Notes under the pieces: model-generated
Databases searched by the model: none
What the model saw: the letters and a program-made list of their open reading frames with translations, nothing else
Told to the model about the DNA's origin: nothing
Shown: in pieces, positions 15,230-19,964 of the stretch
How the letters are laid out: each line of letters starts with the position of its first letter
Numbering within the stretch: position 1 is the first letter of the stretch
DNA from: Tsukamurella sp. M9C
Lineage (GTDB): Bacteria; Actinomycetota; Actinomycetes; Mycobacteriales; Mycobacteriaceae
Assembly: GCF_020169415.1 (NCBI RefSeq)
Contig: NZ_JAIULG010000018.1
Coordinates: forward strand, 1-64,000
DNA: 64,000 nucleotides
Reading direction: 5' to 3'
Position numbers and translations under genes: made by a program

Positions 15230-15230
15230 A

Positions 15231-16544: not shown

Positions 16545-17231
16545 ATGACTGTGATGCAACCGGTACGCAGGCAGACCTTGATAGCGCAGGTCACAGAACA
16601 GCTCCGCGGCGAGATCGCCAGCGGACGATGGCCCGTGGGCGGGCGCATACCCACGGAGACCGAGCTCCGCGAGCTCACCGGCACGGCGCGCAACACCGTT
16701 CGCGAGGCGGTGCAGGCGCTCGTGCACGCCGGCATGCTGGAGCGGCGCCAGGGGTCGGGCACGTACGTACTCTCCGCCTGCGCCACCTCCACGCTGGGTG
16801 ACTACTTCTCCGCCGCGCGCGACACCGACCTGCTCGAGCTTCGCGAGGCGCTCGAGGTGACCGCGGCCGGGCTCGCCGCGGAGCGCCGCGACGACGACGA
16901 CGTCACCGAGCTGCGCCGCCTCCTCGAGGCCCGGAACCGGCTCTGGGCGCCCGAGCAGGTCGCATCCGGCGCCGAGCGGGAGGCCATCGCGGCGGATCTC
17001 GCGATGCACCGCGGCGTGGTCGCCGCCAGTCACAACACGATCTACCTCGAGTTCTACGACTCGCTGGTGCCCGTCCTGCAGGAGCACCTCCAGGAGTTCC
17101 CCGTCGGATTCGCCACGTCGTACGAGTGCGCGCACATCGCGGTCATCGACGCCGTGGCCGCCGGCGATGCGTCGGCCGCCCGCGCCGCCGCCCGCGAGCT
17201 CCTCGCCGAGGTGCGGCTCCGCGAACGCTGA
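16545..17231 (+). CDS. FadR-type GntR regulator (FCD domain)
   Basis: 228 residues. N-terminal winged helix (GGRIPTETELRELTGTARNTVREAVQ-type text, about residues 31-58), then an all-helical FCD domain with metal-site histidines in the MHRGVVAASHN region and near the end. FCD proteins sense small carboxylates, often through a bound metal. Divergent from the CynX-type transporter, its probable target. An in-frame ATG nine bases later is an equal start candidate. Confidence 0.87.
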   Translation: MTVMQPVRRQTLIAQVTEQLRGEIASGRWPVGGRIPTETELRELTGTARNTVREAVQALVHAGMLERRQGSGTYVLSACATSTLGDYFSAARDTDLLELREALEVTAAGLAAERRDDDDVTELRRLLEARNRLWAPEQVASGAEREAIAADLAMHRGVVAASHNTIYLEFYDSLVPVLQEHLQEFPVGFATSYECAHIAVIDAVAAGDASAARAAARELLAEVRLRER

Positions 17232-17233
17232 CC

Positions 17234-17254
17234 AATACCCCACTGGGGTATTAT
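17234..17254 (+). promoter_or_regulatory. Copper-type operator overlapping a -10 box
   Basis: AATACCCC (17234-17241), spacer ACT, GGGGTATT (17245-17252): a perfect dyad of the ATACCC...GGGTAT kind bound by CsoR/RicR copper repressors. The overlapping TATTAT (17249-17254) is a good -10 box seven bases before the GTG start at 17262, implying a leaderless, copper-repressed promoter. Confidence 0.85.
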
Positions 17255-17261
17255 TCGGGCC

Positions 17262-17675
17262 GTGCGGACGATGCGGAGCGGATGGACGGCGGCCACCACG
17301 GCCGTGCTCCTCGCGCTCGCCGTCCTCCTGATGCACCTCGGCATGCCTCCCATGTCGATGCCCGCGGCGTCCGCGTCGACGACGCACCACGGCGCGCCCC
17401 GCGATTCCGCGACTGAGCGCACCACGATGGACCGGGCCGATCACGGCACCTCGGTGCAGAAGCAGACCGTCGATGCGGTCCACGACCACGAGTCGCACGA
17501 CTGCGTCGGCACCGTCGTCGTGCACAAGACCGTCGGCGCGCCACCGCTCGTCGCGGTCCTCCCCCTCGCCGACGGTGCCGCCCGCGCCACTCCGGCGGAT
17601 CACGCCGCCGTCGCGCGCGGTCCGCCGTCCTGGACGGTCTTCGACCTCGCCCAACTCTGCGTTCTCCGAGTCTGA
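17262..17675 (+). CDS. DUF6153-like small exported His/Met-rich protein
   Basis: 137 residues. One N-terminal hydrophobic helix (TTAVLLALAVLLMHLGMPPM) leads into a His/Asp-rich region with candidate metal ligands (THHG, MDRADHG, VHDHESHDC). The C-terminal part ends LAQLCVLRV. This pattern, next to a DUF305 gene and under a copper box, fits DUF6153-type proteins of actinobacteria; the family name is a best guess. Probable periplasmic copper binding or handling. The start is GTG 17262, placed by the -10 box. First gene of a likely two-gene operon. Confidence 0.7.
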   Translation: MRTMRSGWTAATTAVLLALAVLLMHLGMPPMSMPAASASTTHHGAPRDSATERTTMDRADHGTSVQKQTVDAVHDHESHDCVGTVVVHKTVGAPPLVAVLPLADGAARATPADHAAVARGPPSWTVFDLAQLCVLRV

Positions 17676-17757
17676 TCGACGCCCGCGCGCGGCCGCCCGG
17701 CCGCGGCGCGCTGAGCCGACCCATCAGAAGACTCCGAGACCCGTAGAGGGAACAACC

Positions 17758-18393
17758 ATGACCGTTTCACGTATCCGTATCGCCACCATGCTGTCCGCCG
17801 TCGCCGTCGGTGCGTCCCTGATCGGCGCGTGCACCACCGGCGCGTCGACCGAGACCGCCGCGTCGAGCACCACCGCCACCGGCGCCGCCGACCACGCCGG
17901 CCACAGCATGGGCTCGTCGGCCCCGTCGAGCAGTGCGGTCACCGCGCAGTTCAACGACGCCGACGTCGACTTCGCCACGATGATGTACCCGCACCACGCC
18001 CAGGCCGTCGAGATGGCCAAGCTCGTCGAGGGCAAGGGGGCACGCCCGGAGGTCGTCGAGCTCGCCGCCGAGGTCCAGGGCGCGCAGCAGCCCGAGATGG
18101 ACGCTTTCACCCGCCTGCTCGCGCAGTGGGGCAAGCCCGCCCCCAACGCCACCATGGAGCACGCCATGGACGGGATGATGACGCCCGCGCAGATGGAGAG
18201 GCTCGGCACCCTCCGCGGCGCCGAGTTCGACCGCGAGTGGCTCACGATGATGATCGCCCACCACAAGGGCGCCATCGCCATGGCCGACACCGAGCTCGCG
18301 AAGGGCGTCAATCCGGAGAACCGGAAGCTCGCCGAGCAGATCAAGAGCGGCCAGCAGGCGGAGATCGCCCGCATGGAGAAGCTCCTGGCATAG
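17758..18393 (+). CDS. DUF305 lipoprotein
   Basis: 211 residues. Signal peptide with lipobox IGAC (Cys25), Ser/Thr linker, then two ferritin-like DUF305 helical-hairpin halves. Each half has the MM.P/AHH motif (TMMYPHHAQAVEMA and MMIAHHKGAIAMADTEL) that supplies His/Met metal ligands. DUF305 proteins commonly accompany copper resistance genes and are proposed periplasmic copper binders. It lies 82 bp after the DUF6153-like gene, so both should answer to the copper operator upstream. ATG preceded by AGAGGGAAC. Confidence 0.85.
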   Translation: MTVSRIRIATMLSAVAVGASLIGACTTGASTETAASSTTATGAADHAGHSMGSSAPSSSAVTAQFNDADVDFATMMYPHHAQAVEMAKLVEGKGARPEVVELAAEVQGAQQPEMDAFTRLLAQWGKPAPNATMEHAMDGMMTPAQMERLGTLRGAEFDREWLTMMIAHHKGAIAMADTELAKGVNPENRKLAEQIKSGQQAEIARMEKLLA

Positions 18394-18411
18394 CCGACAG
18401 CGGCGTCGTCA

Positions 18412-18444
18412 CGGCCGTCGCCCGCGATCAGCGGGCGGCGGCCG
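18412..18444 (+). terminator. GC-rich hairpin after the copper operon
   Basis: CGGCCGTCGCCCGC (18412-18425) pairs with 18431-18444 over 14 bp with one G-U pair and a 5-nt GATCA loop. No U tract follows. Confidence 0.6.
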
Positions 18445-18575
18445 TCGCGCTGGACGGCGGGGCCGCTGTCGCCCTCCCGTGAGATCCGACGAAATCATTC
18501 CACCGGAACGATTTTCGGGCACAATCAGCAGCGCACCGACGACCCACGTCATTGCTTCGAGAAAGCGAGCAACTG

Positions 18576-19964
18576 ATGACAGCGAGGCATGCCCTCCGCA
18601 AGCCCCGGCCGATCGCACTCGCGGCGGCGGGAACAGGTCTCGCGGGCGTGCTCGCCCTCACCGGCGGCGGTGCGGATTTCCTCGCGCAGGTCGCGGCCAA
18701 GACGATCATCGTCGTCGGCGGGGCCAGCGATCCGACCGGCAAGGACCAGTGGGCCCGGATCGGGCGCGACTACACCGGCCCCGCGCCGGTCTTCGTCCAG
18801 CACCCCGCCGTCTTCGGCATCGGCTTCCCCGGCTTCGCCCTCAGCAGCGACGGCAAGCACACCTACGCGCAGTCGAACGACATCGGCGCGGCGGCCACCG
18901 TCGACGCGATCACCGCGGCGAAGCAGGACCCGAACGAGGAGGTCGTGATCTACACGATCTCCCAGGGCGCCGACGTCGTGGGCCTCGCGGTGCTGCGGTA
19001 CGGAAAGGATCACCCGCTGCCGTCCGGCGGGTCCGCGGGAATCACCGTCATCGAGCAGGGCAGCCCGAGCTTCATCCGCTCCGGTGCGTGGAACCTGATT
19101 CCCGCGGGGATCCCGGGTCTCCACAACGGCCCCGTCCGCAACGACGGCGCGTCCGGCGCGACGGTGGTCAGCATCTGCGTCAAGGGCGATTTCGGCTGCG
19201 GGATGGGCGTCAACCCCCTGATCGCCGCGTTCTACTTCCCGCCGGGCTTCCTGATGCACGGCACCGTTTACACCGCGGAGAACATCGGCCGCTACTCCCC
19301 GACCACCGGCGAGGCCTTCACGCCGGGATCAACTCCCGAGACGCCCGTCGGCACCCGCACCGAGACCCGCAACGGCAACACCGTCACCGTCGAGACCTAC
19401 GCGAACGGCACCGTCAAGCGGACGTGGACCGAGGACAACACGACGTGGGTGTCGATCGACACGGGCGAGAATCCGTGGGGTTGGATGCTGCGCCGCAACG
19501 GCATCGACGTGCCGAAGGAGTTCGACCAGCTCCTGAACGCACTGATTCCGGTGCCCGAGCCCGGTGACTCCGGCCTGATTCCCGGACTGCCCGTCTCCTC
19601 GCCGGACGACCGGGCCGCGTCGCCCGCACGGCACGGCGCCGCACGGCCCGACGCGGTCACCGTCGCCGAGCTGGTCGCGAGCAGCGAGCTCATGACGACG
19701 CCCGCGGTCGAGCCGGTGGCGCCGACGGAGCAGGCGACGGCCGCGGTGCCCGCACCGTCGACTCCCCCGACCGAGCCGGGCGCGACGCCGGAGCCGGTCA
19801 CCGGTGGCTCGGTCCCGTCGACCCCCTCGGACCCGCCGGCCGAGACCCCCGCGCCCGAGGCCCCGTCCACCGAGGTCGCACCGTCGGAGACCCCGGCGCC
19901 CGAGGTCTCCGAGCCCGACGCGACCGAGCAGGCCACGAGCGCCGCGGCGGAGACCGCCGCCTAG
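18576..19964 (+). CDS. Exported PE-PPE-domain serine hydrolase with PT-rich tail
   Basis: 462 residues. A basic N-terminus and hydrophobic helix (LAAAGTGLAGVLALTGGGA) form a signal sequence. The PE-PPE alpha/beta-hydrolase domain spans about residues 35-230, with the nucleophile elbow YTISQGADV and substrate-loop text NPLIAAFYFPPGFLMHG. A Pro/Thr/Glu/Ala-rich low-complexity tail occupies the last 120 residues. PE-PPE domains act as esterases on envelope lipids in mycobacteria. There is no PE or PPE domain and no ESX genes nearby. ATG 18576 is preferred to the upstream TTG. The end overlaps the convergent ADH gene by CTAG. Confidence 0.8.
   Translation: MTARHALRKPRPIALAAAGTGLAGVLALTGGGADFLAQVAAKTIIVVGGASDPTGKDQWARIGRDYTGPAPVFVQHPAVFGIGFPGFALSSDGKHTYAQSNDIGAAATVDAITAAKQDPNEEVVIYTISQGADVVGLAVLRYGKDHPLPSGGSAGITVIEQGSPSFIRSGAWNLIPAGIPGLHNGPVRNDGASGATVVSICVKGDFGCGMGVNPLIAAFYFPPGFLMHGTVYTAENIGRYSPTTGEAFTPGSTPETPVGTRTETRNGNTVTVETYANGTVKRTWTEDNTTWVSIDTGENPWGWMLRRNGIDVPKEFDQLLNALIPVPEPGDSGLIPGLPVSSPDDRAASPARHGAARPDAVTVAELVASSELMTTPAVEPVAPTEQATAAVPAPSTPPTEPGATPEPVTGGSVPSTPSDPPAETPAPEAPSTEVAPSETPAPEVSEPDATEQATSAAAETAA

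What the first reader, a model, noticed from the sequence alone, without database searches (positions are those of the whole stretch)
17232..18444. Leaderless copper-repressed operon of DUF6153-like and DUF305 proteins
A perfect ATACCCC/GGGGTAT dyad overlaps a TATTAT -10 box placed seven bases before a GTG start. The unit has no CopA, CopZ or multicopper oxidase, only two small His/Met-rich exported proteins, so it may be a stand-alone periplasmic copper buffer.
Basis: partly seen in the sequence, partly recalled or inferred. Interest (0 to 1): 0.6.

Follow-up and report, generated by a model that had tools for sequence, protein, structure and literature searches.

The report
Copper operon with stalling-type leader protein
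A two-gene bacterial copper operon appears to be switched by a copper-sensing repressor, and its first gene looks less like a copper sponge than like a small exported protein built to stall its own ribosome and so control the copper-binding protein made from the second gene.

Summary
ATACCCC-ACT-GGGGTAT (17235-17251) overlaps TATTAT (17249-17254), seven bases before GTG 17262. The genome has four exact copies; one of the other three fronts a CopZ-like gene, and a two-mismatch copy fronts a copper-ATPase-like gene. In all 15 Tsukamurella genomes found to carry ORF1 (of 16 searched; window included), a TANNNT box ends 6-7 bases before GTG; 14 keep the dyad there. It fits the type-2 CsoR operator, so the unit should be copper-derepressed, not "copper-repressed".

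The "copper buffer" reading is weak for ORF1, a DUF6153 protein. Of 52 upstream cistrons picked by profile before DUF305 genes, 51 end in R-x-PP plus 14-15 residues; here RGPP, a published ribosome-arrest motif. All 34 loci found through DUF6153 have DUF305 just downstream. ORF1's last codons pair with the DUF305 leader better than swapped leaders in four genera, and better than synonymous recoding mainly in two.

Best reading: a CsoR-controlled, leaderless operon in which DUF6153 is a nascent-chain, copper-sensing arrest leader (CutF/CruR-like, not a DUF2946 member) gating a CopM-like protein. CsoR binding, arrest, copper response and direction are untested. LpqS-like proteins of presumed mycobacteria show the same R-x-PP design.

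The parts
17235..17251 (.). CsoR-type operator dyad ATACCCC-ACT-GGGGTAT (TAC-N9-GTA)
   Evidence: sequence; one of 4 exact sites in the genome; kept in 14 of 15 Tsukamurella orthologues; published type-2 CsoR operator definition (passages)
17249..17254 (+). -10 box TATTAT, overlapping the right arm of the dyad and ending 7 bases before GTG (leaderless start inferred)
   Evidence: TANNNT ends 6-7 bases before GTG in 15 of 15
17262..17675 (+). ORF1, DUF6153 protein (137 aa), proposed nascent-chain copper-sensing leader
   Evidence: Pfam PF19650 30.3 bits against cut-off 27.7; conserved tail and Cys
17478..17504 (+). codons of V-H-D-H-E-S-H-D-C, His/Cys motif ending in the invariant Cys81
   Evidence: Cys in 81 of 81 aligned sequences; 37-40 residues before the Arg of the motif in 77 of 77 cistrons that have it
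17616..17627 (+). codons of R-G-P-P (residues 119-122), proposed arrest motif
   Evidence: RGPP supports arrest in published assays
17655..17661 (+). CTCTGCG in ORF1's last codons, predicted to pair with the ORF2 ribosome-binding site
   Evidence: folds; swap and synonymous tests mixed
17684..17710 (+). GC hairpin, 8 bases after the ORF1 stop codon
   Evidence: 10-pair consensus hairpin in 15 genomes, nearly invariant, one pair with a two-sided change in one sequence; one other copy in the genome, apparently inside a coding frame
17742..17748 (+). CGTAGAG, ORF2 Shine-Dalgarno region, predicted partner of 17655-17661
17758..18393 (+). ORF2, DUF305/CopM-family protein with a hydrophobic N-terminus and a lipobox-like LIGAC (211 aa)
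   Evidence: PF03713 159.7 bits; NF049983 102.8 against 90; PDB relatives 3bt5 and CopM 5ffa/5fej; LIGAC read in the sequence, no signal-peptide predictor run

Best explanation
This is a copper-derepressed, leaderless two-cistron operon with two control layers. (1) A CsoR repressor sits on the dyad that covers the -10 box; copper releases it (operator shown by sequence; binding inferred). (2) ORF1 (DUF6153) is mainly a regulatory leader: a small exported chain with a His/Cys metal motif and a C-terminal RGPP that arrests its own ribosome. Copper on the nascent chain changes the arrest and so changes translation of DUF305, whose ribosome-binding site is predicted to pair with the last codons of ORF1 (motif and conservation shown; pairing predicted; arrest, copper sensing and direction inferred). 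In the window the pairing strand begins 27 nt beyond the last Pro codon, so a ribosome stalled at RGPP should leave the site hidden, while one released to the stop codon would open it. I therefore favour arrest = DUF305 off, copper release = on. (3) ORF2, a CopM-like lipoprotein or exported protein, is the effector that binds copper outside the cytoplasm.
For: Operator: exact dyad, 4 in the genome; the other three exact copies front an HMA (CopZ-like) gene and two genes without Pfam hits; a 2-mismatch copy fronts an HMA/E1-E2 ATPase whose neighbourhood holds a CsoR with C-x24-H-x3-C. Leaderless: 15 of 15. Leader: of 80 DUF305 loci, 52 have an upstream ORF hit by a profile of the Tsukamurella ORF1s, and 51 of these 52 end in R-x-PP plus a short tail, 42 of 42 outside Tsukamurella. 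With a looser tail filter, which itself demands a PP or SP, 78 of 80 loci qualify and 75 of 78 have R-x-PP 14-15 residues from the stop; Cys to Arg is 37-40 residues in 77 of 77. All 34 loci found by DUF6153 profile or family (window excluded) have a DUF305 domain starting 59-144 nt after the leader's stop. In an unnamed genus that I take for Streptomyces, 30 of 30 loci read end RAPP plus 10 residues (28, 2 re-read) and 28 of 30 have DUF305 by profile. Arrest by RGPP/RAPP is published, and S. lividans SLIV_16130 (Cys48, His50, His58, His61, Cys66) arrests in vitro; L176 has C-x-H-x7-H-x2-H-x4-C and one of its 8 in-frame starts gives those numbers (2 of 30 have the spacing). RNA: unusual tail codons, Ile ATT 32 of 37 at -4 against 54 of 311 elsewhere, Glu GAA 32 of 36 at -7 against 76 of 214, Arg CGC 7 of 77 at -2 against 259 of 700; swaps as good as native pairing: Nocardia 0, Rhodococcus group 0, Tsukamurella 16, Mycobacterium group 45, of 3000 each.
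Against: No copper response, CsoR binding or arrest was measured. Native pairing did not clearly beat synonymous recoding in Tsukamurella (1 of 15 at p<=0.05; 2 of 9) or the Mycobacterium group (0 of 8). Predicted Shine-Dalgarno accessibility with the tail free beats its synonymous null in only 12 of 77. Tail free against ribosome at the stop it is lower in 11 of 15 Tsukamurella genomes (0.20 against 0.38) and 8 of 8 Mycobacterium-group loci, but only 20 of 34 Nocardia and 10 of 24 Rhodococcus-group loci (0.38 against 0.35). Swap tests and codon counts do not correct for relatedness. The residues after R-x-PP are conserved as protein, which simple arrest does not need. RPPP (30 of 78) and RDPP are not among the motifs whose arrest I read about; 6 of 34 distant members lack the Arg. 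The nearest solved mechanisms disagree on direction: copper relieves CruR arrest but promotes CutF pausing. DUF305 without a recognised leader is common: 11 of the best 30 class-wide.
Confidence: 0.62

Rival explanations
1. Stand-alone periplasmic copper buffer: ORF1 and ORF2 are both exported copper-binding proteins, simply co-expressed when CsoR lets go.
For: Both have hydrophobic N-termini; ORF1 has a conserved His/Cys motif and ORF2 is in the CopM/DUF305 family. Conserved residues after RGPP argue for a finished protein.
Against: R-x-PP, Cys spacing and rare codons of the tail are kept, while most His/Met positions drift; no folded domain predicted in ORF1 (mean pLDDT 64.9, helices 6-26, 111-118, 129-136 only); DUF305 follows the leader in all 34 loci checked.
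Confidence: 0.2
2. CutF-type direction: copper-bound ORF1 pauses or stalls, and the paused ribosome opens the RNA that hides the DUF305 ribosome-binding site.
For: CutF works in this sense for a detoxifying target; ORF2 would also be wanted under copper.
Against: In the window the pairing strand starts 27 nt beyond the last Pro codon, outside a stalled ribosome's footprint as I estimate it; in some species (L034, L035) part of the predicted pairing lies nearer.
Confidence: 0.3
3. CruR-type: arrest decides Rho-dependent termination between the cistrons, and the GC hairpin at 17684-17710 takes part.
For: A nearly invariant hairpin follows the stop codon in 15 genomes.
Against: No terminator by the T-run rule; gap of 82 nt against 162 in CruR; no test for Rho sites was made.
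Confidence: 0.2
4. Ordinary actinobacterial DUF6153-DUF305 copper operon with no post-transcriptional layer; R-x-PP is a relic or an export feature.
For: Some loci (L239, L240, L247) have DUF305 shortly after a CsoR-type operator and no leader, so the leader is dispensable in some lineages.
Against: R-x-PP kept in 51 of 52 profile-picked cistrons, while RAPP or RGPP occurs in about 0.16% of proteins (186,182 plus 88,578 of 168,430,932).
Confidence: 0.15

Closest known systems
CutF of Rhodobacter capsulatus (cutFOG; mBio 2023, PMC9973294)
   Same: Small exported protein, metal motif, C-terminal proline motif, first cistron, ribosome-binding site of next gene predicted to be hidden by RNA pairing, copper detox target
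   Different: Not DUF2946 over cut-off; no CxxxC; target is DUF305; CsoR-type operator; pairing strand is the leader's own tail, downstream of the arrest site
CruR of Bordetella pertussis (mBio 2022, PMC9426467)
   Same: Copper-linked first cistron with R-x-PP near the C-terminus; fixed spacing between metal motif and R-x-PP (45 there, 37-40 here)
   Different: CXXC absent here; target there is a copper-repressed TonB receptor; Rho mechanism not tested here
S. lividans SLIV_16130 (EMBO J 2025, PMC12992588)
   Same: RAPP/RGPP-containing leader before a metal gene, arrest shown in vitro; Cys/His register equal to the DUF6153 protein L176
   Different: Identity with DUF6153 is my inference; the paper's main text has no word beginning 'DUF'; copper control not shown in what I read
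CopM of Synechocystis / DUF305
   Same: ORF2 scores over both family cut-offs and matches CopM structures by sequence
   Different: CopM is controlled by the CopRS two-component system (abstract start in listing)
LpqS (NF052429)
   Same: Small leader-like protein, several under an ATACCC-GGGTAT dyad, with R-x-PP in all 22 read
   Different: R-x-PP 18-23 residues from the end; next gene in 18 of 22 looks like a CysK2-type enzyme by eye; profiles match over only 8 columns, probability 7%

Membership tests
DUF6153 (PF19650) | score over curated cut-off | tested here: met
   30.3 against 27.7 bits; 40 of 45 aligned relatives hit at E<=0.1
DUF305 / CopM (PF03713, NF049983) | score over curated cut-off | tested here: met
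   159.7 against 27; 102.8 against 90
CsoR type-2 operon | TAC-N9-GTA G-tract palindrome at the promoter | tested here: met
   17236-17250
CsoR type-2 operon | a Cu(I)-type CsoR (C-x24-H-x3-C, motif recalled) in the genome | tested here: met
   C77 protein matches; the second PF02583 protein at C25 does not
CsoR type-2 operon | copper-dependent release and induction | not testable with these tools
   needs EMSA and RNA measurements
CruR / DUF2946 | DUF2946 score over cut-off | tested here: not met
   16.1 against 23.7 bits, E=0.02; 4 of 45 relatives at E<=0.1
CruR / DUF2946 | CXXC metal motif | tested here: not met
   Cys only at 81 (H-D-C) and 133
CruR / DUF2946 | C-terminal RAPP-like motif | tested here: met
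   RGPP 15 residues before the stop
CutF-like (criteria in PMC9973294) | <150 aa, N-terminal export signal, downstream gene on same strand within 1000 nt | tested here: met
   137 aa, hydrophobic helix 6-26 (no signal-peptide predictor run), gap 82 nt
[quoted passage not shown]
   PP is residues 121-122 of 137, just outside
CutF-like (criteria in PMC9973294) | stem-loop shielding the next ribosome-binding site | tested here: inconclusive
   predicted for the window (0.01 unpaired); tests mixed
RAPP/RGPP arrest peptide | peptidyl-tRNA arrest at the motif | not testable with these tools
   needs cell-free translation

The most novel reading that the evidence does not exclude
DUF6153 is a dedicated actinobacterial copper gate with reversed geometry: R-x-PP arrest lies upstream of an RNA helix formed by the leader's own last codons with the next ribosome-binding site, so arrest keeps DUF305 off and copper-triggered release turns it on. 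With CsoR this makes an AND gate of cytosolic and extracytoplasmic copper. LpqS-like proteins, several under similar operators and mostly before CysK2-like genes, would be an independent use of the same R-x-PP device, giving LpqS a function.
Probability: 0.3. Interest if true: 0.78.

Novelty: new variant of a known kind. Interest (0 to 1): 0.62.

Why it matters
Two uncharacterised families, DUF6153 and LpqS (named in NCBIfam as putative copper homeostasis protein), get a specific, cheap-to-test job: arresting their own ribosome to control the next gene. It would extend nascent-chain metal sensing, known from CutF and CruR, to a recurrent actinobacterial arrangement under a CsoR-type operator, and it predicts a geometry opposite to CutF.

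Tried and rejected
Pattern with a 5-base spacer: my error, no hits. PF19650 search over 296 genomes missed the window's own genome, so its 5 of 296 is no census; the profile search (36 of 249) scored only 16 candidates a genome and is no census either. Membership in DUF2946 rejected (below cut-off). Homology DUF6153-LpqS not supported, and the LpqS profile finds nothing in the own genome, an empty answer without a positive control there. Tsukamurella-only RNA pairing test was negative against synonymous recoding (p 0.04-0.85), with 94 of 5000 swaps as good; I kept it and widened the set. The GC hairpin as repeat or T-run terminator rejected: one other copy, apparently in a coding frame; no T-run terminator and no TTGACA-type promoter; one Rfam hit far below its gathering score. 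One search's tail filter demands PP or SP near the end, so I re-counted on profile-picked ORFs. One search measured Cys spacing to an alignment column; one search measured it to the Arg itself and gives 37-40. In one search two of 30 loci (L159, L160) were misread near contig ends; re-read them. In one search, 8 of 30 LpqS-like loci gave no ORF by my filter (which demands the C-terminal Cys) and are not counted. The AlphaFold model was too weak for a fold search and none was run.

Full report
WHAT IS THERE. The window is from a Tsukamurella genome (nearest named relative of ORF2: T. ocularis, 87%). At 17235-17251 lies ATACCCC-ACT-GGGGTAT; its right arm is part of TATTAT (17249-17254), and GTG of ORF1 follows seven bases later at 17262. 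The dyad sits between the stop codon of a GntR/FCD regulator (16545-17231) and ORF1. ORF1 (17262-17675) is a DUF6153 protein and ORF2 (17758-18393) a DUF305/CopM protein.

OPERATOR AND PROMOTER. The own genome has four exact dyads. Besides the window: C25:1676 just before an HMA (CopZ-like) gene; C19:15260, with a second imperfect copy at 15230, before a 329-aa protein with no Pfam hit at E<=0.001; and C36:47353 before a 277-aa protein likewise without a hit. A 2-mismatch copy at C77:8480 fronts a small ORF and an HMA/E1-E2 ATPase, with a CsoR-family gene at C77:10977 that has C-x24-H-x3-C. A further 2-mismatch site, C33:50903, was not looked at. The S. lividans work defines type-2 CsoR sites by TAC-N9-GTA around G-tracts, with Cu(I) abolishing binding (passages of PMC3902906); 17236-17250 fits. 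In 15 of 15 Tsukamurella orthologues (16 genomes searched, window's own included) TANNNT ends 6-7 bases before GTG, and in 14 of 15 the dyad ends 9-10 bases before GTG: a conserved, apparently leaderless promoter under a repressor. Among 78 relatives fetched through ORF2 the pattern TACCC-N3-7-GGGTA lies 330-650 nt before the leader's stop in 9 of 10 Tsukamurella, 21 of 24 of the Rhodococcus group (two Antrihabitans included), 8 of 8 of the Mycobacterium group, 2 of 34 Nocardia and 1 of 2 others: 41 of 78, against 4 of 7800 mononucleotide-shuffled regions. Several Rhodococcus and Nocardia loci also show a TANNNT box 6-7 bases before a start, while the Mycobacterium group shows a leader with a Shine-Dalgarno sequence (read by eye). 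So the operator is not universal: most Nocardia lack it.

ORF1 IS A LEADER-TYPE PROTEIN. I fetched 80 loci by ORF2 (185 confirmed candidates, best 80 kept). A profile of the 15 Tsukamurella ORF1s hits an ORF in 52 of the 80; 51 of these 52 end in R-x-PP plus a short tail, 42 of 42 outside Tsukamurella (RAPP 30, RPPP 11, RSPP 1) and 9 of 10 inside (the tenth RGSP). A tail filter that itself asks for PP or SP near the end finds a qualifying cistron before DUF305 in 78 of 80; L061 is cut at a contig edge and L107 lacks one. Among the 78: RAPP 34, RPPP 30, RGPP 9, RSPP 2, RGSP 1, SDPP 1 and one RPPA (L090). The motif lies 14 or 15 residues from the stop. With three more members added, one Cys is kept in 81 of 81, and 37-40 residues separate it from the Arg in 77 of 77 cistrons with the motif. 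From the other side, 34 loci found by the DUF6153 family or profile in phylum- and order-wide searches (capped lists, window excluded) all have a DUF305 domain starting 59-144 nt after the leader's stop; 28 of these 34 tails have R-x-PP and six only a proline pair (read). In an unnamed genus that I take for Streptomyces 64 of 150 genomes have a match; 30 loci were read, all ending RAPP plus ten residues (28, two re-read), with DUF305 by profile in 28. Among the best 30 DUF305 loci of a class-wide search, not chosen by leader, 19 have a DUF6153-type leader at E<=0.01; of the 11 others, three (L239, L240, L247) have a CsoR-type operator 109-191 bases before the matched DUF305 domain.

WHAT R-x-PP MEANS. 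In EMBO J 2025 (PMC12992588; abstract, sections 8, 13, 14 and found passages) RAPP and RGPP support strong arrest, RGPP generally the most robust; they occur in 186,182 and 88,578 of 168,430,932 proteins and tend to lie near the C-terminus of small exported proteins, upstream of, among others, copper genes. Seven S. lividans examples arrest in vitro; SLIV_16130, before a metal-related gene, has Cys48, His50, His58, His61 and Cys66. A DUF6153 protein of the presumed Streptomyces set, L176, shows that exact spacing, and one of its eight in-frame starts gives that numbering; 2 of 30 have the spacing. I infer that SLIV_16130 is DUF6153. CruR (PMC9426467; abstract, sections 9, 10) and CutF (PMC9973294; abstract, sections 3, 10-12 and passages) are copper-sensing first cistrons with C-terminal proline motifs. 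ORF1 is not a DUF2946 protein by score, lacks CXXC, and its PP lies just outside the CutF paper's 15-residue criterion, so I file it as a DUF6153 protein that may work like these, not as a member. In the open-licence library, DUF6153 is in 0 papers; DUF305 with copper in 9, none with a title about such an operon; four of the five LpqS/arrest/uORF/Mycobacterium/copper terms in 0; and the four papers with three of six arrest and family terms mention LpqS and DUF305 0 times.

RNA LAYER. In Tsukamurella a nearly invariant GC hairpin starts 8 bases after the ORF1 stop (10 pairs, one with a two-sided change in one sequence). In the window the fold pairs CTCTGCG (17655-17661, Leu-Cys-Val codons) with CGTAGAG (17742-17748) at the DUF305 ribosome-binding site. 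Across the 78 relatives the tail codons are unusual: Ile ATT 32 of 37 at -4 against 54 of 311 elsewhere in the same genes, Glu GAA 32 of 36 at -7 against 76 of 214, Arg CGC 7 of 77 at -2 against 259 of 700; relatedness is not corrected. Of 78 cistrons 77 had a readable DUF305 start (L059 not). Native tail-leader duplexes beat synonymous recoding at p<=0.05 in 19 of 34 Nocardia, 9 of 24 of the Rhodococcus group, 2 of 9 Tsukamurella, 0 of 8 of the Mycobacterium group and 1 of 2 others; within-group swaps as good as native were 0, 0, 16 and 45 of 3000 for Nocardia, Rhodococcus, Tsukamurella and Mycobacterium. The earlier Tsukamurella test gave 94 of 5000 swaps and 1 of 15 at p<=0.05. Predicted unpaired probability of the site, tail free against ribosome at the stop: 0.20 against 0.38 in 15 Tsukamurella genomes, lower in 11 (window 0.01 against 0.47); 0.21 against 0.38 in the Mycobacterium group (8 of 8), 0.22 against 0.28 in Nocardia (20 of 34), 0.38 against 0.35 in the Rhodococcus group (10 of 24); against synonymous nulls this measure reaches p<=0.05 in only 12 of 77. 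So pairing between tail and leader is supported in two genera and suggested in two; that it gates the ribosome-binding site is a hypothesis.

MECHANISM. Shown: operator, promoter spacing, gene pair, motif and its conservation, better-than-null tail-leader pairing in some genera. Inferred: CsoR binding, arrest, copper sensing by the nascent chain, direction. The footprint of a ribosome arrested at RGPP (my estimate, about 12 nt beyond the last Pro codon) would stop short of the pairing strand, which begins 27 nt beyond it, so arrest should leave DUF305 off and release should open it. CutF argues for the opposite sign; I rate it a live rival.

LPQS. A recalled LpqS sequence found relatives in 25 of 60 genomes of one unnamed genus, presumably Mycobacterium. 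Of 30 loci, 22 were readable with a filter on the C-terminal Cys, and all 22 have R-x-PP 18-23 residues before the end. Of these, 21 were aligned; all 21 hit NF052429 (LpqS), with Arg and both Pro invariant; the invariant C-terminal Cys is partly due to my filter. In 18 of 22 the next ORF reads like a CysK2-type enzyme by eye (name recalled), and five have an ATACCC-GGGTAT-like dyad 424-446 bases before the end of the gene. Profiles show no real homology to DUF6153.

VERDICT. Observation confirmed; buffer interpretation demoted; new variant of a known kind.

Noticed in passing
L186-L215 (unnamed genus, presumed mycobacteria): LpqS-family proteins carry R-x-PP near the C-terminus in all 22 read and mostly precede a CysK2-like gene; one genome (G715) has 11 matches.
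   Followed up: partly
G000:C25:49650-49871 (L002): A second CsoR-family protein lacks the His of the C-H-C copper set, so it may sense something other than copper.
   Followed up: no
G000:C99:75144-75674 (L019): A second DUF305 gene starts at the very end of a different upstream gene and has no DUF6153 leader.
   Followed up: partly
G000:C19:15230-15276 and C36:47353-47394: Paired CsoR-type dyads before two proteins without Pfam hits that look related when I read the DNA by eye; likely further copper regulon members.
   Followed up: partly
L036/L059 (Tsukamurella sp. PLM1): The DUF305 frame appears broken after the start (match length not a multiple of three), by mutation or assembly error.
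   Followed up: no
window 18411-18445: A strong GC inverted repeat follows ORF2, perhaps the operon's terminator without a T-run.
   Followed up: no
L239 (genus g2), L240 and L247 (genus g12): DUF305 genes with a CsoR-type operator close upstream and no leader cistron: a simpler architecture for comparison.
   Followed up: no
window 18552-19964: Large protein with a weak, below-cut-off cutinase match and a Pro/Thr/Ala-rich tail.
   Followed up: no
L079 (Skermania): A natural variant in which the Arg of R-x-PP is lost (GSDPP) though the DUF305 gene remains.
   Followed up: no
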